Part shown: piece after piece, positions 2,142-60,049 of the stretch
Layout: each line of letters starts with the position of its first letter
Numbering within the stretch: position 1 is the first letter of the stretch
Assembly: GCA_958296105.1 (NCBI GenBank)
Contig: OY282441.1
Coordinates: 1,461,800-1,525,799 of the forward strand
Source of the DNA: an uncultured Dehalococcoidia bacterium
GTDB taxonomy: Bacteria; Chloroflexota; Dehalococcoidia; Lucifugimonadales; UBA1123
Reading direction: 5' to 3'
DNA length: 64,000 bases
Translations under genes and position numbers: made by a program
The notes under the pieces: generated by a model
The model's input: the letters and a program-made list of their open reading frames with translations, nothing else
Told to the model about the DNA's origin: nothing
Database searches by the model: none

Positions 2142-5045
2142 TCAGGGAGACTCTGCATCGCAGATATCCGCCGCTGCGAGAAGTACGAGGTCGTTCGGGT
2201 GGCGAAACTCGGAGCAGCGCCGCGCCAGTTCGGCCTCCGCCCGGGTCTTCATGCGCTTCAGGGTATCGCGTCGTACATTTGGCGGGGTCTGGTCTACGTG
2301 GCCAGCGCTCACAGCTTCGGATCGGAGCAGACTCCCAAAGAAATCGGGGTTGGCGCCCGCTCGCGCGCTGCCCCGTTCGGTGAAGATGGGGATGAGCGCG
2401 TCCCATCTGGGGACTCCCTGATCGTTCTGCCAGCGTATCTTGTACAGCGCGAGGGCGCCGGACACGGGTCCGCTCACGCTGGCGTACTCTCCCTCGAATT
2501 CGGGGGATTTTGCGAACTCTATCAGATCGCGGAAGAACGGGCTTGCGAAGTCCATAGGGACGACGTTCTGGCGTCGGACTGCTATCTGTCTGTCCACGGT
2601 GACGCGCGCTACGGTTGCGCGAGGCGGAAACTCAGAGTATCTGCCGCGCATCTCGTTCGGCAGCTGAATCTCCAACGTGCGCCCGTTGTGCAAACGGCTT
2701 CTGACCCTCACGCCCTTGAATGGGAGAATCCCCTCCAAGAACGCCAGGACGTCCTCTGGGCCAAACGTGTACAGGGCGGTCGCGGCTTGTGGGTCGTAGC
2801 CTTCGACATGGGCGAACAGAGTCTCTTGCTGGCGCTTTGCTTCCTCCGCTCGCTCGATTGCGCTGTCTATCTGATCTTCGGTGCGCTCCATGTTCATCGC
2901 CCTGCTGCTGGCGAGGATCGTCGCTATGTCGATGCGCTCCAGAAGGTCGCCGATGATCTCCGTCTCGAGTCCGTCTCTAAATTCGTCGCTGACTTCTGCC
3001 ATGTCCTGGGCGATGTTTTCCACCCGATCCAGCATCATTCCAAGCGTCTCGTTGTCAAAGCCGTCTTGTGACATTAGGTTGAATACGATGACCCTTTCCC
3101 GCTGGCCGTATCTGTACAGTCGTCCAGCGCGCTGTACCAGACGGCTGGGATTCCACGGCAGATCGTAGTTGACCAAGATATGACATCGTTCGTGCAGGTT
3201 GAGACCCTCGCCGCCCGCTTCGGTCGACACCATGAAATGCGCGGTTTCGTTGAAAGCGTCTATGCTGGCTCGTTTTTCCGCCAGCGACATGGAGCCGTTT
3301 ATCTGAACTGCCTGGCTGCGGGGGTATCTCTTCTTCAGCGCGCGCGCAAGGTAATCTTGGGTTCCTCGATATTCCGTGAAGACAAGCAGGCGCTGGTTCT
3401 GTTCGCGCAGCGGATCGACGATTTCGGAAAGGAAGTGGTTTAGCTTGGCGTCGTCTCGCTTCACCCGCTTCGCCGCAGACAGCAGCTCGACGATCTGGCT
3501 CTGCTCTTCTTCGAAGAATGGATTGGCGCCGACGTCGGAGGCGGCGATGTTGTCCGATATGTCCTCCAAGTCGTCCATGCCGTCCATCCCCTCATCGAAA
3601 GCGTCTTGCATCTCTTCGAGCGTTGGAGCGTTCGCATAGGGGACAAGATTCTGGTATTCGCCCTTCAGACGCGCCAGCCGCCGCTCTAACGCCAGCTCTA
3701 TTGCGGCGATGCTCGACGACGCCAGCTTTCGGTAGGTGGTCATGACGAAACCGATCGCCCTGCCTGTCACGCCGCCAGCCTCGGACGCCGCGTAGCCTTG
3801 TCGCAGGTATGACTGAAGCTGAAGGTCGAACGACCTGGCCATCTCCGAAAGCGGAACTTGCACCTTGTTCGTGGTCTGTCCCCTGAATATGAATCTTCCG
3901 TTGGCGTCGGTGACGAGGCTCTTGCGGTTGCGCAGAACCACTTCCGAGACAACGGAGGGGTCGCTGAAGATGCGGTAGAGCCTTCTATTCAAGTCTGGGC
4001 GCAGCAGCATAAGGAGATTGACGAACTGGGGTGTCCTGCCTTGGTGAGGCGTTCCAGTTAGGAAGATGAGGGAATCCGTCATGCCTTTGAGCTTCTCAGC
4101 CAGCTGGTAGCGTTGTGTCACGGCATGGCCTTCGATCTTGCTCAGATGGTGCGCCTCGTCGAACACGATGACGTCCCAGACGCCCGAGTCTCCGAATATG
4201 GGGCTGTGGCTGTCCGACTTGGCTCGGTCGATTGACACGATGACCTTGTCGAACGTCGCCCAGTGCGAGGGCTGGCTGATCTGAAAGTCAAGTCCATAGA
4301 TTCGGAAATCCTCGTTGAACTTGTAGCGCATCTCGTCCTGCCACTGGCGCACCACTCCAGCCGGGCAAACGACCAGAACCCGCCGCGCCTGACGTCTGCG
4401 CTTCATTGCGGCGAGCAGCAGACCGACTTCTATGGTCTTGCCAAGCCCAACGTCGTCTGCTATGAGCCAGTTCGACTGGTCGGATGTCATTATGCGGTGA
4501 ACGAGGTCGATCTGGTGCGGCAGAGGGTCGACGTCCAGGCGATCGAGCGCCCCCGTGACCTGATTCCACGAGTCCAGCGCGTATGCCAGCGCCTTTAGCC
4601 GGAATCTCTCCGGGCTGTCTGGCTCAGGGGCTTCCATTCTGGCGTACTTCATGGAAGCGTCCCTGATGCGTATGAGCTTTTCATAGGGAAGCCAACGGCT
4701 TTCGCCCGTGCTGTGCAGCTGGACCTGCACCATGTCACGTCCGGCGATTCTGCGATTGGTGAGCACGGTTGCGATTCCGAGCGTCTTTCGGGTGTTGGAC
4801 TTTGGCCTGTCATACACGACGTGGCCCGGTCTGAATCCGCTGCGCAGCTCTTCCACCGTGTGCCACTCGGTTGTTCTGGCACTTCCCCACTGCACCTCTA
4901 TTTCAGTCCGATTCCCCTCTCTTCGGCTGCTTGCCACCCGTCCCAAAGCGCCTTTGCGATCAGGATGCGACACCCAGCAGTCTTTCCCCGGTACGAGAGA
5001 GGATCGAGAGGGACTGTTCGACATGTCAGCGCTCGCCGCTACCAT
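2142..5045 (-). CDS. SNF2-family (RapA/HepA-like) helicase
   Basis: This 967-residue protein has a full SNF2 ATPase core: Walker A ADDVGLGKT near 196-204, DEAH box FDEAHH near 295-300, motif III LTGTPHQG near 330, and a helicase C domain ending in the motif VI stretch QRAGRLYRYGQ. Before the core are two small beta-rich segments (residues 20-125) like the tudor/SH3-type N-terminus of RapA. The C-terminal 300 residues are not recognised. Such proteins translocate on duplex DNA and remodel bound complexes. RapA recycles RNA polymerase, while related proteins (DpdE, DrmD) work in DNA modification and defence loci. The start overlaps the end of the upstream Trp-rich gene by 7 bases, so the two are probably translated together. 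Confidence 0.88.
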   Translation of the reverse strand: MVAASADMSNSPSRSSLVPGKDCWVSHPDRKGALGRVASSRREGNRTEIEVQWGSARTTEWHTVEELRSGFRPGHVVYDRPKSNTRKTLGIATVLTNRRIAGRDMVQVQLHSTGESRWLPYEKLIRIRDASMKYARMEAPEPDSPERFRLKALAYALDSWNQVTGALDRLDVDPLPHQIDLVHRIMTSDQSNWLIADDVGLGKTIEVGLLLAAMKRRRQARRVLVVCPAGVVRQWQDEMRYKFNEDFRIYGLDFQISQPSHWATFDKVIVSIDRAKSDSHSPIFGDSGVWDVIVFDEAHHLSKIEGHAVTQRYQLAEKLKGMTDSLIFLTGTPHQGRTPQFVNLLMLLRPDLNRRLYRIFSDPSVVSEVVLRNRKSLVTDANGRFIFRGQTTNKVQVPLSEMARSFDLQLQSYLRQGYAASEAGGVTGRAIGFVMTTYRKLASSSIAAIELALERRLARLKGEYQNLVPYANAPTLEEMQDAFDEGMDGMDDLEDISDNIAASDVGANPFFEEEQSQIVELLSAAKRVKRDDAKLNHFLSEIVDPLREQNQRLLVFTEYRGTQDYLARALKKRYPRSQAVQINGSMSLAEKRASIDAFNETAHFMVSTEAGGEGLNLHERCHILVNYDLPWNPSRLVQRAGRLYRYGQRERVIVFNLMSQDGFDNETLGMMLDRVENIAQDMAEVSDEFRDGLETEIIGDLLERIDIATILASSRAMNMERTEDQIDSAIERAEEAKRQQETLFAHVEGYDPQAATALYTFGPEDVLAFLEGILPFKGVRVRSRLHNGRTLEIQLPNEMRGRYSEFPPRATVARVTVDRQIAVRRQNVVPMDFASPFFRDLIEFAKSPEFEGEYASVSGPVSGALALYKIRWQNDQGVPRWDALIPIFTERGSARAGANPDFFGSLLRSEAVSAGHVDQTPPNVRRDTLKRMKTRAEAELARRCSEFRHPNDLVLLAAADICDAESP

Positions 5046-31453: not shown

Positions 31454-32299
31454 TTACAGCACCGCCTCCGCCATGCGCTCCAGCTGTTCGCCCATCTCGT
31501 GTTCCGTCTCGCGCACGTCCGGGCGAACCACCACCCTATCGGCTCCCGCGTTCAGGAAGTCTTGGGCGGTCTGGCGGTCGGCCGGCTGGCCATAGACCGA
31601 TATGCTGATGGACGCCGGATCGCGTCCTCGCTCATCGGCGAGCGCGTCTAGCTGTCGGCGGCTGTCCTCTATGACGGCGGGCGTCACCCTGTTGGGCAGC
31701 CAGCCGTCTCCCACCTCGACCACGCGGCGCAGCACCCTGGGCGCCATGCCTCCGATGAGAATAGGCGGGTGGGGCTTCTGCGCGGGCTTGGGGTACATGC
31801 GCACAGGCGGGAAGTCGTAATACTTGCCGTGAAACTCGGCTTCGTCCTTCGTCCAAAGCTCCTTCAGCGCCAGCAGCGACTCCTTCGCCTGCGTCCAGCG
31901 GTGATCGAAGTCGCCGCCCATTATGGTCGTCTCCTCGCGGTGCCAGCCTGTGCCGATGCCCAGAATGAAGCGGCCGCCGCTGAACAGGTCGAGCGTGGAG
32001 ACGGTCTTGGCGAGAACCAGCGGGTTGCGCTCGGGGATCAGCGTGATGCCGGTGCCGAGCTTGATCTTGCTGGTGACGCCGGACGCCTGCGCGAGCGCGA
32101 TGTACGGGTCGGCGAAGTGGGCGTATGTCCACGGTATCACTCCGTCCTCCGAACTGGGGAACGGGCTGTCGGAGTGTACCGGCAGGATTGGATGCTCCGC
32201 GTACCAGATCGACTCGAAGCCAAGCGATTCGGCTTTGGACGCCATGAACGCGGCGCTGACCTTGTAGGCGGGAAGCGGGGTGGATATTCCGATTGCCAT
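31454..32299 (-). CDS. LLM-class F420-type oxidoreductase
   Basis: The 281-residue product is a luciferase-like monooxygenase-fold protein. It shows SKAESLGFESIWYAEH, KLGTGITLIPERNPLVLAKTVSTLDLFSGGRFILGIGTGWHREE and PILIGGMAPRVLRRVVEVGDGWLPN, typical of F420-dependent members in actinobacteria and Chloroflexota. The substrate is unknown. The start at 32299 has AGGAGTGACAGAC before it. That same ribosome-binding stretch appears in the gaps behind the DUF4268-like genes just upstream, which is informative about how that array grew. Confidence 0.88.
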   Translation of the reverse strand: MAIGISTPLPAYKVSAAFMASKAESLGFESIWYAEHPILPVHSDSPFPSSEDGVIPWTYAHFADPYIALAQASGVTSKIKLGTGITLIPERNPLVLAKTVSTLDLFSGGRFILGIGTGWHREETTIMGGDFDHRWTQAKESLLALKELWTKDEAEFHGKYYDFPPVRMYPKPAQKPHPPILIGGMAPRVLRRVVEVGDGWLPNRVTPAVIEDSRRQLDALADERGRDPASISISVYGQPADRQTAQDFLNAGADRVVVRPDVRETEHEMGEQLERMAEAVL

Positions 32300-32325
32300 G
32301 TCTGTCACTCCTGAGATTTTGGATT

Positions 32326-33273
32326 TTAGCCGTGCGGCGATTGCGAGAGAACTCGGCGGTAGATTTCGAGTTTTTCGTGAAGCCAGTCTATGGCGATATG
32401 CCAGTTGCCGCGGTGGCTGACGTCGATTTCGAGGTACCACTGAGCGAGCCACTTTCCGATGAAGTTGGGACCGAACGAGGCGGGCGGACGTTCGGGGTCG
32501 ATGCCCAACTCTCTCATCAGATTGGGGATGTATGGTCTTATGCGTTCGCGCGTCGGCTCTATCGGCTGATTATGAGCGGATGTTATGTAGATGCCTACTC
32601 CTATATCCAGAGATACGAGCTGCGGTATTCGCGCTCGGACGTTCTCGATGACGGTGGAGTGAAACACGTTCGAGCCTCTGTGTCCTTTCGGAATTCCATC
32701 GTTCGGATGGCGCTCCGAGTATGTCGCCCAAAAATCGTGGCGGAGCGTCCCAAGTTCCGTAGGCTGGCCTCCGCGCGCTGCCTGAGATATGGCGCGAATC
32801 TGTCTATCCCAATCGCTTGGCCGCTCCAGAACCTCGAATCTAAGCGACAGCGGAGAGTCCCCAATCTTCACCACGACAGGACATATGGCGAAGAATTGGA
32901 ACGAGTCGGCGGTATTCTCGTTCAGCCAGCGGATGGCGGAGAGATGCGCTTCCGTGAATCCGCTGGCTATCCATATCACCGTCCGCGCTTCCAGCCCGGC
33001 GAGGTAGGTGAGTATCTGCCCCAAGTGGGTATGGTCTGACCCTTCGAGCTGGTTTTCGATGAGCACTATGCCGTCGTCCATCGGGTTGCGCGCTAGGATG
33101 TCTGCTGAGAACCTGCCAACCGGAACCTCGACTCCGACCGGATCAAGAGGGATGCCGATGGCGTCCGAAATGTAGTTTAGGTTCTTGGCGAGCCATGGGG
33201 TGAAGTCGTTCGCCTCATGCTGCCAGACTTCACGCAGGTTCACGTTTTCGAGGTTTCCGAATTCGATTGCCAT
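32326..33273 (-). CDS. DUF4268-like PD-(D/E)XK protein, array copy 1
   Basis: The 315-residue protein has a nuclease-like N-terminal half: Asp 58 in SADIL, then Glu 73 and Gln 75 in VLIENQLE, followed by DHTHLGQILTYLAGL. This is the D-(E/D)xK pattern with Gln in the Lys position. The C-terminal half (about 195-315) carries the DUF4268-like region ending WLHEKLEIYRRVLSQ. It differs from copy 2 by an extra stretch around residues 165-180 (DWDRQIRAISQAA). No partner gene of a known restriction system is adjacent. It is the last of four tandem copies and lies 26 bases upstream of the LLM gene. Confidence 0.75.
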   Translation of the reverse strand: MAIEFGNLENVNLREVWQHEANDFTPWLAKNLNYISDAIGIPLDPVGVEVPVGRFSADILARNPMDDGIVLIENQLEGSDHTHLGQILTYLAGLEARTVIWIASGFTEAHLSAIRWLNENTADSFQFFAICPVVVKIGDSPLSLRFEVLERPSDWDRQIRAISQAARGGQPTELGTLRHDFWATYSERHPNDGIPKGHRGSNVFHSTVIENVRARIPQLVSLDIGVGIYITSAHNQPIEPTRERIRPYIPNLMRELGIDPERPPASFGPNFIGKWLAQWYLEIDVSHRGNWHIAIDWLHEKLEIYRRVLSQSPHG

Positions 33274-33313
33274 GTCGTCTGTCTCCTCACGATATGCGCT
33301 TCAGCGGGGGCGG

Positions 33314-33344
33314 ATCCCCCTCTCCCTTCGAGGAAGAGGGGATT
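33314..33344. repeat. Palindromic repeat between DUF4268-like copies 1 and 2
   Basis: CCCTCTCCC-TTCGA-GGAAGAGGGG hairpin in the 111-base gap. The gap also holds a G5 tract and the GAGGAG ribosome-binding site of copy 1. Confidence 0.6.
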
Positions 33345-33384
33345 TGATGCTCTCGTTTCATGTTGTCATGTCTGTCACTCCATT

Positions 33385-34296
33385 TTATCCGTGCGGCGCT
33401 TGCGAGAGAACTCGGCGGTAGATTTCGAGATTTTTGTGAAGCCAGTCTATGGCGCTATGCCAGTTGCCGCGGTCGTTGACGTCGATTTCGAGGTAACGCT
33501 CGGCAATCCACGGTCCGCTGAAGTTGAAGTTGGGACCGAACGAGTCGGGTGGGCGTTTGGGGTCGATGCCCAACTCTCTCATCAGATTTGGGAGGTATGG
33601 TCTTATGTGTTCGCGCGTCAGATCGGTCAGCATGTTGGCCCTAGACGTGATGCAGATGCCCACTGATCCTTGAGCTATGTACTGCCTTATTCGCGCGTCG
33701 ACGCTCTTGATGTTGTGAGACACGTTCGAGCCTCTGAACCCTTGCCGTATTCCGTCGTTCGGATGGCGCTCTGAGTATGTCGCCCAAAAATCGTGGCGGA
33801 GCGTCCCAAGTTCCGTATGACCACGCTCTCCCGGTGACGCGGGGTATTCGAGGACCACGAACATCGGAGCCAGTGGCGAATCCCCAATCTTCACCGCTAT
33901 GACGTCGACTGCGAAGAACGAGAAATCGGCAGCGGTGTTCTCGTTCAGCCAGCGGATGGCTTCGAGATGCGCTTTCTCGAATCCGCTGGCTACCCATATC
34001 ACCGTTCGCGCTTCCAGCCCGGCGAGGTAGGTGAGTATCTGCCCCAAGTGGGTGTGGTCTGACAGTTCTAGCTGATTTTCTATCACCACGTTACTGCCAT
34101 CTTGCAAGTTGCGCGCTAGGATGTCCGCGTAGAACCGATCAACGGAAGCCTCGATTTCCAGCGTCTCCAGCGGGATGCCGATGGCGTCCGAAATGTATTT
34201 TAGGTTCTTGTCGAGCCATGGGGTAAAGTCGTTCGCCTCATGCTGCCACGCTTCGCGCAGGTCTACCACCTCAATTTTTCCGAACTCGATTGCCAT
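33385..34296 (-). CDS. DUF4268-like PD-(D/E)XK protein, array copy 2
   Basis: The 303-residue product keeps ADILARN and VVIENQLELSDHTHLGQILTYLAGL in the N-terminal half. The C-terminal half is of the copy 1 type (ELGTLRHDFWATYSERHPNDG). The predicted active-site pattern D-ExQ is intact. Its 5' region holds a run of 13 G at 34329-34341, only 33 bases before the start codon. The corresponding tracts are much shorter in the other copies. Confidence 0.75.
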   Translation of the reverse strand: MAIEFGKIEVVDLREAWQHEANDFTPWLDKNLKYISDAIGIPLETLEIEASVDRFYADILARNLQDGSNVVIENQLELSDHTHLGQILTYLAGLEARTVIWVASGFEKAHLEAIRWLNENTAADFSFFAVDVIAVKIGDSPLAPMFVVLEYPASPGERGHTELGTLRHDFWATYSERHPNDGIRQGFRGSNVSHNIKSVDARIRQYIAQGSVGICITSRANMLTDLTREHIRPYLPNLMRELGIDPKRPPDSFGPNFNFSGPWIAERYLEIDVNDRGNWHSAIDWLHKNLEIYRRVLSQAPHG

Positions 34297-34328
34297 GTCG
34301 CCGTTCTCCTCACGATATGCGCTTCAGC

Positions 34329-34341
34329 GGGGGGGGGGGGG
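34329..34341. promoter_or_regulatory. G13 homopolymer upstream of DUF4268-like copy 2
   Basis: Thirteen consecutive G bases (C on the coding strand) lie between the palindromic repeat and the ribosome-binding site. Equivalent positions have 5 G (copy 1), 6 G (copy 3) and an interrupted tract (copy 4). Such tracts mutate by slippage and can tune promoter or leader spacing. Confidence 0.6.
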
Positions 34342-34345
34342 CGAA

Positions 34346-34388
34346 TCACCCTCTCCCTAGCCCTCTCCCATCGAGGGAGAGGGGATTC
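34346..34388. repeat. Palindromic repeat between DUF4268-like copies 2 and 3
   Basis: CCCTCTCCCTAGCCCTCTCCC-ATCGA-GGGAGAGGGG; longer left arm with a doubled CCCTCTCCC. The surrounding gap is nearly identical to the gaps of copies 3 and 4. Confidence 0.65.
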
Positions 34389-34427
34389 GATGGTCTCGTT
34401 TCATGTTGTCATGTCTGTCACTCCATT

Positions 34428-35336
34428 TTATCCGTGCGTCGCTTGCGAGAGAACTCGGCGGTAGATTTCGAGGTTTTCGTGAAGCCAGTCAGCGGCTCGC
34501 GTCCAGTTGTCGGGGTTGGAGATGTCGATGTCCAGCCGTATGAAAGCATTGTCGCTCATTCCGCTCGGGTTCATGCCCAGCGCTTTCGCCAACGCTGGCA
34601 CGTAAGGCTTCACAAGCTCCTGCGCCGAGTCGAACGACCGGGCTTCCGGCGTGATGACCCACTGCCCCACCTGATTGCGCCCAGCATGATACCACCTGAT
34701 TATGAACTTCGTTCCTCGAACGGGGAATTGCGGGTTGCGCCCCGCGAATCCGCGCCGGAGGCCATCGCGCGGATAGCGGTCGGCGTAGTGCGCCCAGAAA
34801 TCGCGGCTGAAGCGCCCTTCCGAGGACAGGCTTTCGCTCCCTGTTGTCATGTCTGTCACTCCACGCTCTCCCGGTGGCGCGGGGCGTTCGACGACCGCAA
34901 ATAGCAGCGCCAGTGGCGAATCCCCAATCTTCGCCACACTGACGAGGAAGGCGGAGAACGAGAAATCGGCAGGGGTGTTCTCGTTCAGCCAGCGGATGGC
35001 GTCGAGATGCGCTTCCGTGAACTCGCTGGCTATCCATATCACCGTCCGCACTTTCAGCCCGGCGAGGTAGGTGGGTATCTGCCCCAAGTGGGTATGGTCT
35101 AACCATTCGAGCTGATTTTCTATCACCACGTTACTGCCATCTTGCGAGTTGCGCGCTAGGATATCTGCCGAGAACCGATCAACGGAAGCCTCGATTTCCA
35201 GCGTCTCCAGCGGGATGTCAATGATGTCCGAAATGTAGTTTAGGTTCTTGGCGAACCATGGGATGAAGTCGTTCGCCTCATTCGGCCAGACTTCGCGCAG
35301 GTTTACCACCTCAAGTTTTCCGAACTCGATTGCCAT
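34428..35336 (-). CDS. DUF4268-like PD-(D/E)XK protein, array copy 3 (chimeric C-terminus)
   Basis: The 302-residue product shares the N-terminal nuclease-like half of copy 2 (ASVDRFSADILARN, VVIENQLEWLDHTHLGQIPTYLAGL). After about residue 158 it changes to a diverged C-terminal half (RFSRDFWAHYADRYPRDG ... WLHENLEIYRRVLSQ). The junction codes for GVTDMTTG, from GGAGTGACAGACATGACAAC. This is the same sequence found as a ribosome-binding site plus start codon in the gaps of the array, which suggests fusion by recombination in that short homology. Confidence 0.75.
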   Translation of the reverse strand: MAIEFGKLEVVNLREVWPNEANDFIPWFAKNLNYISDIIDIPLETLEIEASVDRFSADILARNSQDGSNVVIENQLEWLDHTHLGQIPTYLAGLKVRTVIWIASEFTEAHLDAIRWLNENTPADFSFSAFLVSVAKIGDSPLALLFAVVERPAPPGERGVTDMTTGSESLSSEGRFSRDFWAHYADRYPRDGLRRGFAGRNPQFPVRGTKFIIRWYHAGRNQVGQWVITPEARSFDSAQELVKPYVPALAKALGMNPSGMSDNAFIRLDIDISNPDNWTRAADWLHENLEIYRRVLSQATHG

Positions 35337-35377
35337 GTCGCCGTTCTCCTCACGATATGCGCTTCAGCGGGGGGCGA

Positions 35378-35409
35378 ATCACCCTCTCCCATCGAGGGGG
35401 ATGGGATTC
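35378..35409. repeat. Palindromic repeat between DUF4268-like copies 3 and 4
   Basis: CCCTCTCCC-ATCGA-GGGGGATGGG with a G6 tract beside it, in a 112-base gap homologous to the other array gaps. Confidence 0.6.
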
Positions 35410-35448
35410 GATGGTCTCGATTCATGTTGCCATGTCTGTCACTCCATT

Positions 35449-36357
35449 TTATCCGTGCGGCGCTTGCGAGAGAACTCGGCGGTAGATTTCGAGGTTTTCG
35501 TGAAGCCAGTCAGCGGCTCGCGTCCAGTTGTCGGGGGAGGAGATGTCGATGTCCAACCGTATGAAAGCATTGTCGCTCATTTTGCTCGGGTTCACGCCCA
35601 GCGCTTTCGCCAACGCTGGCACGTGAGGCTTCACAAGCTCCTGCGCCGAGTCGAACGACCGGGCTTCCGGCGTGATGACCCACTGCCCCACCTGATTGCG
35701 CCTGGCATGATACCACCTGATTGTGAACTTCGTTCCTCGAACGGGGAATTGCGGGTTGCGCCCCGCGAATCCGCGCCGGAGGCCATCGCGCGGATAGCGG
35801 TCGGCGTAGTGCGCCCAGAAATCGCGGCTGAAGCGCCCTTCCGAGGACAGGCTTTCGCTCCCTGTTGTCATGTCTGTCACTCCACGCTCTCCCGGTGGCG
35901 CGGGGCGTTCGACGACCGTGAATCCCGGCGCCAGTGGCGAATCCCCAATCTTCGCCACACTGACGAGGAAGGCGGAGAACGAGAAATCGGCAGGGGTGTT
36001 CTCGTTCAGCCAGCGGATGGCGTCGAGATGCGCTTCCGTGAACTCGCTGGCTATCCATATCACCGTCCGCACTTTCAGCCCGGCGAGGTAGGTGGGTATC
36101 TGCCCCAAGTGGGTATGGTCTAACCATTCGAGCTGATTTTCTATCACCACGTTACTGCCATCTTGCGAGTTGCGCGCTAGGATATCCGCCGAGAACCTGC
36201 CAACCGGAACCTCGACGCCGTCCAGATCGAGAGGGATGCCGATGACGCGCGAAAGCCTGTCGAGGTTGTTGGCGAGCCATGGGATGAAGTCGTTCGCCTC
36301 ATTCGGACAGACTTCGCGCAGGTTTACCACCTCGAGTTTTCCGAACTCGATTGCCAT
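35449..36357 (-). CDS. DUF4268-like PD-(D/E)XK protein, array copy 4 (mosaic)
   Basis: The 302-residue product is almost identical to copy 3 from about residue 60 on, including the chimeric junction. Residues 40-60 (DGVEVPVGRFSADILARN) instead match copy 1. This mosaic indicates gene conversion between array members. The D-ExQ pattern is kept. It is the first gene of the array in transcription order. GAGGAG lies upstream of the ATG as in the other copies. Confidence 0.75.
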   Translation of the reverse strand: MAIEFGKLEVVNLREVCPNEANDFIPWLANNLDRLSRVIGIPLDLDGVEVPVGRFSADILARNSQDGSNVVIENQLEWLDHTHLGQIPTYLAGLKVRTVIWIASEFTEAHLDAIRWLNENTPADFSFSAFLVSVAKIGDSPLAPGFTVVERPAPPGERGVTDMTTGSESLSSEGRFSRDFWAHYADRYPRDGLRRGFAGRNPQFPVRGTKFTIRWYHARRNQVGQWVITPEARSFDSAQELVKPHVPALAKALGVNPSKMSDNAFIRLDIDISSPDNWTRAADWLHENLEIYRRVLSQAPHG

Positions 36358-36557: not shown

Positions 36558-37910
36558 TCACACAGCCAGCGCGCCCATCGGGTCCCACGGCGGCAGGACT
36601 ACCGGCTCGGTGTCGAGCGCGGCTAGAAGCTCGTCGGACAGGCAGCCGCGCGGGGCGGCGATCTCGAACATGTACTCGTCGAACCACGAGTCGTTCATCA
36701 GGAAGAAGCCCTTGTCTCCGACGGCTTCGCCGTAGCTGTTCTCCACGCGCCAGCGGCGGGGCGCGCCCTCCACCACATCTACCCCAGTGAACAGCATCGC
36801 GTGGGTCATCTGCGTCTGGCCATACTCCAGCCGAGCGGCCTTGTCCATGCCGAACTCGGCTCCATAGACGCCGGCGTAGTCGAACAGCTCCGCGTCCCAC
36901 AGTCCCAGCTTGGGGTGGTTCTGCTTGCCCGTGTCGCACCCCATCCACACGGGGCGACCGTCTTCGATCTGCCGCCGCGTGATGTCCTTCATCACCTGTA
37001 TCGGAACGTTCAGGTATCGCACCGAGCGCGCGCCTACGACATTGCCGAGATAGCCGATGGTGTACGTCTGGAAGTATGGGTGGTTGGGTCTAGGGTCGTT
37101 CACGAGGCACACCATATCGGAGTATGCCGTCGTCAAATACCTGTCCGCGAACTCCAGCGGCGTGAGCCTGCCTTCTCGGTGGAAGCCGCCGCTCTTGTCG
37201 CGCCACTGCCAATCTACGGCTGTTGGCGGGTCGCCCAAGTGTATGCACAGGATTCGGAAGACGGTCTTGAGCGCATCGAGCTTTGCCTGCCGCATTGCGT
37301 CCAGCCCGGCCTCCTGCTGGTAGAGACGACGGATTGTCGCCGCGCCCTGCCGCACCTGATAGTACAGCATGTCGTTCATCCGCCGCGTGCTGCCGGAGCT
37401 TTCGGTCTCCGGCATGGCCTGCTTGGGAACGACGCCGTACTTATCGACGAGGTTGACGAACATGTCCCACTGGCCCGCGTCCTCGACCGGCGCAGTCATC
37501 AGGTGGTGGACGATGCGGTCGTCCACCGGACGGTCGGCAGTCTCGATGACGGCTTCCAGCACGAAGTTGGCGCGCTCGATCTTGTCCCAGAACATCATGT
37601 AGCTCTGGCTGAACTCGAACTGCTTGACGTTCAGCTTCTTCATCGTGTCCACGCGGAACAGGTTGAGTCCGCTGAACAGCCAGCAGCGCCCGGACGCGCC
37701 CTGATGCGTGGGTGTCCAGTCGTCCAGCATCGTCGAGAACGTGTGCGTCGCGCCCGTGGCGATGCGGTGATCCAATGCGACCTCGTTGACGTCGCGCTGA
37801 GTGACCGTGTTCTGCATGAGCCGGTTGCGAGAGTCCGCCCTGAAGTCGTCAGCGAACGCGGATACGTCCTCCGCAGTCAGTGACTGATTGATTTCTTGCG
37901 CTGTTGTCAT
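36558..37910 (-). CDS. pepC: C1-like aminopeptidase, bleomycin hydrolase/PepC family
   Basis: The 450-residue product is a full-length bleomycin-hydrolase type cysteine peptidase. The catalytic Cys is in SGRCWLFSGLN (near 73), His in MTHAMLFTGV (near 375) and Asn in WRVENSYGE (near 395). It also shows FSQSYMMFWDKIERANF and WMGCDTGK. Members are cytosolic hexameric aminopeptidases. It lies 15 bases behind the NHL gene, last of five minus-strand genes. It is unusual to find it in one run with a phosphotriesterase and NHL protein. Confidence 0.93.
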   Translation of the reverse strand: MTTAQEINQSLTAEDVSAFADDFRADSRNRLMQNTVTQRDVNEVALDHRIATGATHTFSTMLDDWTPTHQGASGRCWLFSGLNLFRVDTMKKLNVKQFEFSQSYMMFWDKIERANFVLEAVIETADRPVDDRIVHHLMTAPVEDAGQWDMFVNLVDKYGVVPKQAMPETESSGSTRRMNDMLYYQVRQGAATIRRLYQQEAGLDAMRQAKLDALKTVFRILCIHLGDPPTAVDWQWRDKSGGFHREGRLTPLEFADRYLTTAYSDMVCLVNDPRPNHPYFQTYTIGYLGNVVGARSVRYLNVPIQVMKDITRRQIEDGRPVWMGCDTGKQNHPKLGLWDAELFDYAGVYGAEFGMDKAARLEYGQTQMTHAMLFTGVDVVEGAPRRWRVENSYGEAVGDKGFFLMNDSWFDEYMFEIAAPRGCLSDELLAALDTEPVVLPPWDPMGALAV

Positions 37911-56671: not shown

Positions 56672-57436
56672 CTAAAGCGACTCTCGAATACGCTCTAACT
56701 CCGCTTCCGCCCTCGCCGCGCGTTCCTCAGCATCCGCTCTCGCCGCTCGCTCGGACTCAGCGCGCTCTTCCGCCTCGGCTCTGACCGCTCGCTCGAACTC
56801 AGCGCGCTCTTCCGCCCTCACAGCGCGCTCTTCAGCCTCCGGAAGATTTCGCAGGTACTCTCCGCGCTCAGGATCGTAGAAGCGCAAACGGCCTCGATCC
56901 CAGCACAGATTCAGATTCAGAATCGGGCTGTACCCCCAGATCACACCGTCCGACTCGTGGTGAATCTCTATCGGGACATACTCGCCATCCACAAGAGCAT
57001 CGCCTGCCAGGGGCCGGTCGTGATACAGGCCGCCGCTGGCATCGAAGCGCCAGTACTCCCCAGCCCCCAGGTCTCGGTAGCCATCTCGCTTGACCGTGTA
57101 GTCTCTCGCGCCCGTCGTCTCCGAGGCTATCTCCAGAACGAACTCCGGCGGCTTTCCCACATCGCTTACGGTGTAGCCGTTGGCGCTCTCTATCGCTTCG
57201 GCATCCACGCCGAATGCGATTATGCAGTCGGGTACCAGATACCCGCGCCGGTCTCGAGCGTCGCGCCGCAGGTAGCCGGAGCCGCTTACCAAAGTGGATG
57301 GGCTGCCGAAGCGCCGTTCGAGCATGGTGTGAGTGTGTGAGATGTGCTTGTGCTGAAGCATGTCGGGCGTCTTGGGGGGGTCGGGCAGCTTGGCGTATGG
57401 CTTGCGCCGTCCGGGGGTAGTCGCTGTGGTGGTCAT
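56672..57436 (-). CDS. Uma2-family PD-(D/E)XK protein with coiled-coil tail, array copy 1
   Basis: The 254-residue product has a Uma2 (DUF820) core. Asp 70 lies in LVPDCIIAF and Glu 102 in FVLEIASETTGARD, where the Lys position is Ala as in many Uma2 proteins. GEYWRFDASGG follows. After residue 195 comes a charged coiled-coil tail of repeats like EERAEFERAVRAEA. It is the last of four tandem copies. The core is almost identical in all four, while the tail differs in repeat number and order. The function of Uma2 proteins is unproven. Confidence 0.85.
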   Translation of the reverse strand: MTTTATTPGRRKPYAKLPDPPKTPDMLQHKHISHTHTMLERRFGSPSTLVSGSGYLRRDARDRRGYLVPDCIIAFGVDAEAIESANGYTVSDVGKPPEFVLEIASETTGARDYTVKRDGYRDLGAGEYWRFDASGGLYHDRPLAGDALVDGEYVPIEIHHESDGVIWGYSPILNLNLCWDRGRLRFYDPERGEYLRNLPEAEERAVRAEERAEFERAVRAEAEERAESERAARADAEERAARAEAELERIRESL

Positions 57437-57497
57437 GGTGGGCCTCTTGCCGCTTGGCGGGAGCGCGGAGACTATCAGATATTTGGGGCCGTTCGTC

Positions 57498-58286
57498 CTA
57501 TTCCAAATCGCCGAATAATCGCCTCATCCGCTCTCGAACACGCTCTAACTCCGCTTCAGCCTCCGATCTCGCCGCCCGCTCGAACTCAGCCCGTTCCTCA
57601 GCCTCCGCTCTCGCCGCCCGCTCGAACTCAGCGCGCTCCTGCGCTTCCGATCTCGCCGCCCGCTCGGTCTCAGCGCGCTCTTCAGCCTCCGGAAGATTTC
57701 GCAGGTACTCACCGCGCTCAGGGTCGTAGAAGCGCAGGCGGCCTCGATCCCAGCACAGATTCAGGTTCAGCATCGGGCTGTATCCCCAGATCACACCGTC
57801 CGACTCGTGGTGAATCTCTATCGGGACATACTCGCCATCCACGAGAGCATCGCCTGCCAGCGGCCGGTCGTGATACAGGCCGCCGCTGGCATCGAAGCGC
57901 CAGTACTCCCCAGCCCCCAGGTCTCGGTAGCCGTCTCGCTTCACCGTGTAGTCTCTCGCGCCCGTCGTCTCCGAGGCTATCTCCAAGACGAACTCCGGCG
58001 GCTTTCCCACATCGCTTACGGTGTAGCCGTTGGCGCTCTCTATCGCTTCGGCATCCACGCCGAACGCGATTATGCAGTCGGGTACCAGATACCCGCGCCG
58101 GTCTCGGGCGTCGCGCCGCAGGTAGCCGGAGCCGCTTACCAGCGTGGAAGGGCTGCCGAAGCGCCGCTCTAGCATGGTGTGAGTGTGTGAGATGTGCTTG
58201 TGCTGAAGCATGTCGGGCGTCTTGGGGGGGTCGGGCAGCTTGGCGTATGGCTTGCGCCGTCCGGGGGTCGTCGCTGTGGTGGTCAT
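57498..58286 (-). CDS. Uma2-family PD-(D/E)XK protein with coiled-coil tail, array copy 2
   Basis: The 262-residue product has the longest tail of the four (ERAETERAARSEAQERAEFE blocks), ending in RVRERMRRLFGDLE. The core (residues 1-195) matches copy 1 almost residue for residue, including Asp 70 and Glu 102. The 61-base gap to copy 1 has the same leader (AAGCGGCAAGAGG) as the others, so each gene keeps its own ribosome-binding site. Confidence 0.85.
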   Translation of the reverse strand: MTTTATTPGRRKPYAKLPDPPKTPDMLQHKHISHTHTMLERRFGSPSTLVSGSGYLRRDARDRRGYLVPDCIIAFGVDAEAIESANGYTVSDVGKPPEFVLEIASETTGARDYTVKRDGYRDLGAGEYWRFDASGGLYHDRPLAGDALVDGEYVPIEIHHESDGVIWGYSPMLNLNLCWDRGRLRFYDPERGEYLRNLPEAEERAETERAARSEAQERAEFERAARAEAEERAEFERAARSEAEAELERVRERMRRLFGDLE

Positions 58287-58343
58287 GGTGGGCCTCTTGC
58301 CGCTTGGCGGGCGGAGACTATCAGATACTTGGAGTCGTTCGCC

Positions 58344-59099
58344 CTATTCCGAATCGCCGAAGAATCGTCTCATCCGCTCTAACTCCGCTTCCGCCCTCGT
58401 CGCCCGTTCCTCAGCCTCCGATCTCGCCGCCCGCTCGAACTCAGCCCGTTCCTCAGCCTCCGATCTCGCCGCTCGCTCGGTCTCAGCCCGTTCCTCAGCC
58501 TCCGGAAGATTTCGCAGGTACTCTCCGCGCTCAGGGTCGTAGAAGCGCAGGCGGCCTCGATCCCAGCACAGATTCAGATTCAGCGTCGGGCTGTATCCCC
58601 AGATCACACCGTCCGACTCGTGGTGAATCTCTATCGGGACATACTCGCCATCCACGAGAACATCGCCTGCCAGCGGCCGGTCGTGATACAGGCCGCCGCT
58701 GGCATCGAAGCGCCAGTACTCCCCAGCCCCCAGGTCTCGGTAGCCATCTCGCTTGACCGTGTAGTCTCTCGCTCCCGTCGTCTCCGAGGCTATCTCCAAG
58801 ACGAACTCCGGCGGCTTTCCCACATCGCTTACGGTGTAGCCGTTGGCGCTCTCTATCGCTTCGGCATCCACGCCGAACGCGATTATGCAGTCGGGTACCA
58901 GATACCCGCGCCGGTCTCGGGCGTCGCGCCGCAGGTAGCCGGAGCCGCTTACCAGCGTGGATGGGCTGCCAAAGCGCCGTTCGAGCATGGTGTGGGTGTG
59001 TGAGATGTGCTTGTGCTGAAGCATGTCGGGCGTCTTGGGAGGGTCGGGCAGCTTGGCGTATGGCTTGCGCCGTCCGGGGGTAGTCGCTGTGGTGGTCAT
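58344..59099 (-). CDS. Uma2-family PD-(D/E)XK protein with coiled-coil tail, array copy 3
   Basis: The 251-residue product has the same core, and a tail with three repeat blocks ending LERMRRFFGDSE. A duplicated end of the upstream hydrolase gene lies in the gap just before its 5' flank (59130-59299). Confidence 0.85.
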   Translation of the reverse strand: MTTTATTPGRRKPYAKLPDPPKTPDMLQHKHISHTHTMLERRFGSPSTLVSGSGYLRRDARDRRGYLVPDCIIAFGVDAEAIESANGYTVSDVGKPPEFVLEIASETTGARDYTVKRDGYRDLGAGEYWRFDASGGLYHDRPLAGDVLVDGEYVPIEIHHESDGVIWGYSPTLNLNLCWDRGRLRFYDPERGEYLRNLPEAEERAETERAARSEAEERAEFERAARSEAEERATRAEAELERMRRFFGDSE

Positions 59100-59129
59100 G
59101 GTGGGCCTCTTGCCGCTTGGCGGGAGCGC

Positions 59130-59299
59130 GCGGAGACGATCAGATCCTTGGGGGCGGAGCGTGGATGGCGTCCGCCTCTCCCAAGCAGTGTATCATGCGA
59201 ATGCGCGACTCATCACGATTTCAGCATCGCCCTCAGCCAGTCGAGCAGCATATCGCGCAGCTCGTCCCTGAACTCTGTCAGTCCGTGTTCGACGTCGGT
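59130..59299 (-). pseudogene. Duplicated 3' end of the alpha/beta hydrolase gene between Uma2 copies 3 and 4
   Basis: The stretch matches about 60080-60245. Its codons read VEHGLTEFRDELRDMLLDW and stop at 59213, corresponding to the last 25 or so residues of the hydrolase at 60160-60882. The flanking Uma2 leader is included in the match. It marks the unit that was duplicated: hydrolase 3' end plus leader plus Uma2 gene. Confidence 0.85.
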
Positions 59300-59311
59300 G
59301 GGGCGTTCGCC

Positions 59312-60049
59312 CTATTCCGAATCGCCGAATAATCGCCTCATCCGCTCTCGAACACGCTCTAACTCCGCTTCCGCCCTCGCCGCTCGTTCTTCCGCTTCCA
59401 CTCTCGCAGCTCGTTCCTCAGCCTCCACTCTCGCCGCCCGCTTTTCCGACTCCGGAAGATTTCGCAGGTACTCACCGCGCTCAGGATCGTAGAAGCGTAG
59501 GCGGCCTCGATCCCAGCACAGATTCAGATTCAGCATCGGGCTGTATCCCCAAATCACACCGTCCGACTCGTGGTGAATCTCTACCGGGACATACTCGCCA
59601 TCCACAAGAGCATCGCCTGCCAGCGGCCGGTCGTGATACAGGCCGCCACTGGCATCGAAGCGCCAGTACTCCCCTGCCCCCAGGTCTCGGTAGCCGTCTC
59701 GCTTCACCGTGTAATCTCTCGCGCCCGTCGTCTCCGAGGCTATCTCCAAGACGAACTCCGGCGGCTTTCCCACATCGCTTACGGTGTAGCCGTTGGCGCT
59801 CTCTATCGCTTCGGCATCCACGCCGAACGCGATTATGCAGTCGGGTACCAGATACCCGCGCCGGTCTCGGGCGTCGCGCCGCAGGTAGCCGGAGCCGCTG
59901 ACCAAAGTGGAAGAGCTGCCGAAGCGCCGTTCTAACATGGTGTGAGTGTGTGAGATGTGCTTGTGCTGAAGCATGTCGGGCGTCTTGGTAGGGTCGGGCA
60001 GCTTGGCGTATGGCTTGCGCCGTCCGGGGGTCGTCGCTGTGGTGGTCAT
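59312..60049 (-). CDS. Uma2-family PD-(D/E)XK protein with coiled-coil tail, array copy 4
   Basis: The 245-residue product has the shared core (Asp 70, Glu 102) and a shorter tail of a distinct repeat (RAARVEAEE, twice), ending LERVRERMRRLFGDSE. It is the copy nearest the intact hydrolase gene and first of the array in transcription order; the hydrolase ends 110 bases upstream. Confidence 0.85.
   Translation of the reverse strand: MTTTATTPGRRKPYAKLPDPTKTPDMLQHKHISHTHTMLERRFGSSSTLVSGSGYLRRDARDRRGYLVPDCIIAFGVDAEAIESANGYTVSDVGKPPEFVLEIASETTGARDYTVKRDGYRDLGAGEYWRFDASGGLYHDRPLAGDALVDGEYVPVEIHHESDGVIWGYSPMLNLNLCWDRGRLRFYDPERGEYLRNLPESEKRAARVEAEERAARVEAEERAARAEAELERVRERMRRLFGDSE

What the first reader, a model, noticed from the sequence alone, without database searches (positions are those of the whole stretch)
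32326..36357. Four-copy DUF4268-like array with mosaic gene conversion
Copy 4 matches copy 1 at residues 40-60 (VEVPVGRFSADIL) and copy 3 after that. Copies 3 and 4 share a C-terminal half unlike copies 1 and 2. The gaps (92-131 bases) are nearly identical. The array is being recombined while the D-ExQ core is kept. The pattern is like that of contingency loci or variable effector cassettes.
Basis: seen in the sequence. Interest (0 to 1): 0.6.

Follow-up and report, generated by a model that had tools for sequence, protein, structure and literature searches.

The report
Shuffled array of candidate defence nucleases
Four side-by-side copies of a predicted virus-defence DNA-cutting enzyme have been duplicated and re-mixed, keeping one cutting part but carrying two different versions of the second part, and a stray copy of the next gene's start signal left in the joints shows how the mixing happened.

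Summary
Four tandem minus-strand genes (c1-c4) are strongly mosaic (8 runs of informative sites against 31.6 expected; no shuffle of 20,000 that low). They are not Pfam DUF4268 members by score. All four match PADLOC's single-gene defence candidate PDC-S11 over their full length. AlphaFold gives an N-terminal PD-(D/E)XK nuclease of NucS/EndoMS type (D58, E73-x-Q75) and a variable C-terminal domain.

The same peptidase-LLM locus holds four copies here, one in a same-genus genome and none in another (60-bp gap). The 15-mer GGAGTGACAGACATG, start signal of the downstream gene, occurs six times in the genome, all here: its own gene, the three gaps, and inside c3 and c4 at the N/C junction. Thus one illegitimate duplication founded the array, and a gap was later built into the chimeric genes. 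Between c1/c2 and c3/c4, N domains are 71-77% identical, C domains 28-33%, last 25 residues 76-84%.

Related genomes carry free-standing N-only and C-only genes. The in-frame start inside c3/c4 lies where C-only genes begin, so c3/c4 may also make the C domain alone. Defence activity and current recombination are untested. 'Contingency locus' is not supported.

The parts
32326..33273 (-). copy 1 (c1): PDC-S11 nuclease, C-module type 1
   Evidence: ORF; PDLC04911 E 9e-81 over residues 1-311
33385..34296 (-). copy 2 (c2): N-module like c3/c4 in parts, C-module type 1
34428..35336 (-). copy 3 (c3): C-module type 3 joined through a gap-derived linker
35449..36357 (-). copy 4 (c4): as c3, plus a foreign block in the N domain
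36198..36268 (-). c4 block (residues about 30-54) unlike c3; second half c1-like
   Evidence: 13 consecutive 14|23 sites at columns 257-291
34491..34850 (-). c3 C-module, from internal ATG to shared tail
   Evidence: 28-33% identity to c1/c2, with shared flanks; AF2 pLDDT 88
35512..35871 (-). c4 C-module
   Evidence: 94% identical to c3 C-module
34848..34862 (-). GGAGTGACAGACATG inside c3, in frame (Met163): fossil and possible working internal start
35869..35883 (-). GGAGTGACAGACATG inside c4, in frame (Met163)
33367..33381 (-). GGAGTGACAGACATG in gap c2/c1 (followed by ACAACATG)
34410..34424 (-). GGAGTGACAGACATG in gap c3/c2
35431..35445 (-). GGAGTGACAGACATG in gap c4/c3 (keeps ATGGCAA as in the downstream gene)
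32297..32311 (-). the source: ribosome-binding site and start codon of the downstream LLM (luciferase-like) gene
34349..34383 (+). dispersed palindrome in gap c3/c2 (shorter forms in the other gaps)
   Evidence: the gap sequence has about 80 further short matches in the genome
36402..36436 (+). same palindrome upstream of c4
34329..34341 (+). 13-bp poly-G tract upstream of c2 (shorter in the other copies)
31454..32299 (-). downstream flank: LLM class luciferase-like oxidoreductase
   Evidence: PF00296 E 1.9e-54
36558..37910 (-). upstream flank: Peptidase_C1_2
   Evidence: PF03051 E 1.1e-159

Best explanation
A local cluster of four paralogous single-gene nucleases of the candidate defence family PDC-S11. 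Each protein has an N-terminal PD-(D/E)XK nuclease domain (inferred to cut DNA) and a C-terminal alpha-beta3-alpha-beta-alpha domain (inferred to recognise the target or control the nuclease). One illegitimate tandem duplication, whose joint contains the start region of the downstream LLM gene, founded the array. Later homologous exchange and at least one further illegitimate joining shuffled N and C modules. The result is a kept nuclease with two C-module types, which would widen or change what the set recognises. Shown: duplication joint, mosaic blocks, 0/1/4 copies at one locus in the genus, two C-module types, conserved active-site residues. Inferred: DNA cleavage, anti-phage role, C domain as specificity part, selection for diversity.
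For: PDC-S11 full-length matches. Invariant E20, D58, E73, H83-L84-G85 and near-invariant Q75 across 34 relatives. N-domain fold nearest to NucS/EndoMS, Z 11.5, rmsd 2.2 over 103 residues. Same locus with one copy in G002 and none in G003. GGAGTGACAGACATG six times in 3.18 Mb even with one mismatch allowed, all here. Gap c4/c3 keeps ATGGCAA like the LLM gene; the other two gaps and both internal sites share ATGACAACA, so the internal sites descend from a gap. N-domain tree: c1-c4 one clade (97/98) and c3+c4+G002 rejected (p-AU 0.013); C-domain tree: c3/c4 with G002 (92/88). Between genomes, N domains 64-77% alike go with C domains 23-52% alike. Homologues lie on plasmids, a provirus and IMG/VR contigs.
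Against: No activity has been shown for PDC-S11; a 2026 genomic study treats PDCs as unvalidated (PMC12813430). The immediate neighbours are metabolic genes, not a defence island. dN/dS between the closest copies is near 0.85, which fits relaxed constraint as well as diversifying selection; c3 and c4 carry 5 and 3 departures at conserved positions, though none at catalytic ones. The C-domain tree does not formally reject one clade for c1-c4 (p-AU 0.108). The runs test ignores relatedness.
Confidence: 0.62

Rival explanations
1. Neutral birth-and-death: the duplicates are drifting paralogues, and the mosaic is a by-product of RecA-dependent exchange and repeat-mediated duplication without selected function.
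For: dN/dS near 0.85 for c3-c4 and for the c2-c3 N domain. Truncated copies exist elsewhere (G016 L066 N-only piece, G554 and G553 N-only genes). The dispersed palindrome in the gaps is common in the genome.
Against: All four ORFs are intact with catalytic residues kept; c1-c2 N-domain dN/dS is 0.30; tandem PDC-S11 genes recur in other genomes.
Confidence: 0.22
2. A contingency or phase-variable locus in which recombination or poly-G slippage switches expression or specificity within a population.
For: Module mosaics with homologous flanks; 13-bp poly-G upstream of c2, 3-6 bp in the siblings; the genome has about ten tracts of at least 13 bp against about one expected.
Against: No recombinase recognised near the array and no strong inverted repeats flanking modules; divergence between modules is old (28-33% identity); most long poly-G tracts have a different flank consensus.
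Confidence: 0.08
3. DNA-repair or mobile-element-linked nucleases (NucS-like function) rather than anti-phage defence.
For: The nearest fold is the repair endonuclease NucS/EndoMS.
Against: No match to NucS by sequence, reversed domain order, patchy presence (26 of 98 relatives), presence on plasmids and a provirus, full-length PDC-S11 profiles.
Confidence: 0.1

Closest known systems
PADLOC defence candidate PDC-S11 (PDLC04911, 04912, 04914)
   Same: Full-length profile matches, E 1e-70 to 1e-81 with PDLC04911
   Different: Listed as a single-gene candidate; here four tandem mosaic copies with two C-module types
Pfam DUF4268 (PF14088)
   Same: Relatives with the same N domain carry it as their C domain (L017 E 1e-21, L013 E 3.5e-14)
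   Different: c1-c4 C domains fall below detection
NucS/EndoMS repair endonuclease (2vld, 5gke)
   Same: Nuclease-domain fold, Z 11.5
   Different: Nuclease domain is N-terminal here, and the motif is E-x-Q
Type I restriction HsdS target-domain shuffling (PMC3077401, PMC6265443)
   Same: Works alike: a kept part and exchangeable domains recombined at conserved flanks
   Different: No methylase, no site-specific inversion, nuclease and variable domain in one protein; specificity untested. The comparison rests on abstracts and general knowledge
Shedu (SduA) nuclease domain (8ti9, 8ps5)
   Same: PD-(D/E)XK fold of a defence protein, Z 6.5-6.6
   Different: Z within the common range; no sequence match found

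Membership tests
PDC-S11 (PADLOC) | full-length profile match | tested here: met
   E 1e-70 to 1e-81, residues 1-298/311; all 34 family members too
PDC-S11 (PADLOC) | location in a defence neighbourhood | tested here: inconclusive
   neighbours metabolic; SNF2 helicase 27 kb away and an Uma2 array 20 kb away
PDC-S11 (PADLOC) | anti-phage activity | not testable with these tools
   needs experiment; PDCs described as unvalidated
DUF4268 (PF14088) | Pfam gathering score | tested here: not met
   no match at E<=1 for c1-c4
DUF4268 (PF14088) | related fold of the C domain | tested here: inconclusive
   c1 and c3 C domains share one order of elements; L042 weakly matches PF14088; no DUF4268 member was folded
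PD-(D/E)XK nuclease superfamily | D...ExK-like active site on the core fold | tested here: met
   D58, E73 invariant, Q75 near-invariant; fold matches
NucS/EndoMS | sequence homology over the whole protein | tested here: not met
   PDB sequence search with the family profile finds no NucS; only residues 15-144 align by fold
Contingency (phase-variable) locus | switching recombinase or inverted repeats next to the variable modules | tested here: not met
   none recognised
Contingency (phase-variable) locus | variable-length tract or configurations within a population | not testable with these tools
   no reads; one poly-G13 tract upstream of c2

The most novel reading that the evidence does not exclude
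N and C domains are interchangeable, separately encodable parts. c3 and c4 each make two proteins from one gene, the full nuclease and a free C domain started at the embedded GGAGTGACAGACATG. The free C domain, as in the C-only genes of relatives, would work as an adaptor, inhibitor or partner for the nucleases of the array.
Probability: 0.22. Interest if true: 0.7.

Novelty: new variant of a known kind. Interest (0 to 1): 0.55.

Why it matters
PDC-S11 is a candidate defence family with no described mechanism in the papers searched. This locus gives a natural experiment: the same nuclease with two C domains, a one-copy orthologue and an empty site. It makes the role of the C domain directly testable by swaps. 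It also shows, with a unique sequence tag, how a bacterial defence-type gene can be duplicated and rebuilt in place, including a ribosome-binding site turned into coding sequence at a domain boundary.

Tried and rejected
Pfam and NCBIfam give no family for c1-c4. The C domain alone gives no convincing solved relative: best Foldseek E 0.16; VIA Z 6.8 to type III secretion chaperones and 4.6 to the MotA C domain and a restriction-enzyme DNA-binding domain, all within the common range, so no fold claim is made. An internal start at the linker is not a family feature: an SD-like site with ATG at the domain linker was found only in c3 and c4; L040 has only a GTG there. Promoter and terminator scans are at chance, and the gap hairpins are not significant. 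Tandem copies in 71 viral contigs: none within the flanks held. Literature for PDC-S11 and DUF4268: only incidental mentions.

Full report
WHAT IS THERE. Four tandem minus-strand genes of 302-315 codons lie between a Peptidase_C1_2 gene and an LLM luciferase-like gene. The gaps are 111, 131 and 112 bp. The genome is a single 3.18-Mb contig, 97% complete. By its relatives it is a Dehalococcoidia bacterium: the best named hits are Dehalococcoidia MAGs, and one same-order genome has a contig of the length of one of them, OY282565.1. A fifth, lone family member lies at 86 kb of the same chromosome.

IS THE MOSAIC REAL. Yes. Informative sites fall in 8 runs against 31.6 expected under shuffling, with no shuffle of 20,000 that low. 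The test ignores relatedness, but the blocks are large. c4 carries 13 consecutive c1-like sites at residues 42-54, is preceded there by sequence unlike all three siblings, and is 100% identical to c3 over the following columns 361-540. The C domains fall into two types: 70% within c1/c2, 94% within c3/c4, 28-33% between. The last 25 residues are 76-84% alike between the pairs. Pairs between genomes with N domains 64-77% identical have C domains only 23-52% identical. So c1-c2 (N 74, C 70) and c3-c4 (N 87, C 94) share modules, while c1/c2 against c3/c4 look like different species in the C domain and like close paralogues in the N domain and tail.

HOW THE ARRAY AROSE. GGAGTGACAGACATG, the ribosome-binding site and start codon of the downstream LLM gene, occurs six times in the genome even with one mismatch allowed, all here: the LLM gene itself, each of the three gaps, and inside c3 and c4. 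In the gaps it is joined to the sequence that lies upstream of c4 (CATGAAA..GAGACCATCGAATC), so all gaps share one duplication joint. Gap c4/c3 keeps ATGGCAA as in the LLM gene; the other gaps and the two internal sites share ATGACAACA. The simplest order is: one illegitimate tandem duplication; a G-to-A change; then a gap fused to a C module and built in frame into the linker of what are now c3 and c4 (GERG-VTDMTTGSES). The order is inferred by parsimony. Around it, the same locus has one copy in same-genus G002 (short gaps, no palindrome) and none in G003 (60 bp between the flanking genes); more distant members of the bacterial family have other genes there.

TREES. On N domains c1-c4 form one clade (97/98), and a clade of c3, c4 and the G002 gene is rejected (p-AU 0.013). 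On C domains c3/c4 sit with G002 (92/88), apart from c1/c2. The C-tree alternative of one c1-c4 clade is not formally rejected (p 0.108), so the conflict is good but not absolute.

WHAT THE PROTEIN IS. All four match PADLOC PDC-S11 over their full length (E 1e-70 to 1e-81). Across 34 family members E20, D58, E73 and H83-L84-G85 are invariant and Q75 nearly so. The AlphaFold model of c1 (pLDDT 87) has a nuclease core closest to NucS/EndoMS, Z 11.5. The E-x-Q form is known from active enzymes such as BglII (own knowledge, not tested). The C domain of c3, folded alone (pLDDT 88), shows the same order of elements as in c1 (H-EEE-H-E-H) but no convincing solved relative.

MODULARITY ELSEWHERE. In the same order, C-only genes of 138-176 codons exist, several with clear ribosome-binding sites (L214, L215, L216, and one in tandem with two full genes in G016, start L065:6782). 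N-only genes of 154 and 205 codons lie between two full-length genes in G554 and G553. Aligned, the internal ATG of c3/c4 falls where these C-only genes begin, a few residues before the conserved FW. Thus the C module of c3/c4 may once have been, or may still be made as, a free protein. The internal start was not found in other family members at this place.

HOW IT PROBABLY WORKS. Inferred: the C domain senses or binds the invader's DNA or another infection cue, and the nuclease domain cuts. Holding several C types with one nuclease type would widen the range, in the manner of HsdS domain shuffling, but without a methylase. Presence on plasmids, a provirus and IMG/VR contigs fits a defence role; patchy presence (26 of 98 relatives) fits too. 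Against: no tested activity, metabolic neighbours, and dN/dS near 0.85 between the closest copies.

VERDICT. Observation confirmed, interpretation partly supported. A new variant (recombining multi-copy array) of a known candidate kind. Contingency switching is not supported.

Noticed in passing
window 56672-60049 (-): A second tandem array in the same window: four Uma2-family (PF05685, PDC-S03) putative nucleases, 95% identical, differing in the number of C-terminal E/R/A-rich repeats.
   Followed up: partly
window 2142-5045 (-): SNF2-type helicase matching BrxHI/DrmD/HmaA defence profiles (best E 2e-96), without an obvious partner system checked.
   Followed up: no
G000:C1 297245, 637075 (rev), 869987, 949244, 965836, 1339133, 1775507, 1786065, 1788619: Poly-G tracts of 12-17 bp, most followed directly by TA; tracts of at least 13 bp number about ten against about one expected from composition. 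Possible slippage loci.
   Followed up: partly
gaps of the array and about 80 other places in the genome: Dispersed palindromic repeat CACCCTCTCCCTAGCCCTCTCCCATCGAGGGAGAGGGGAT, perhaps REP- or MITE-like; may supply homology for duplication.
   Followed up: no
L209 2512-2976 (-) and L210 1990-2607 (+): N-only PDC-S11 nuclease genes sandwiched between two full-length genes in two same-order genomes.
   Followed up: partly
L065 start 6782 (-): C-only gene that keeps the first codons of the full-length gene (MATKTELV) and lacks the nuclease domain, in tandem with two full-length genes.
   Followed up: partly
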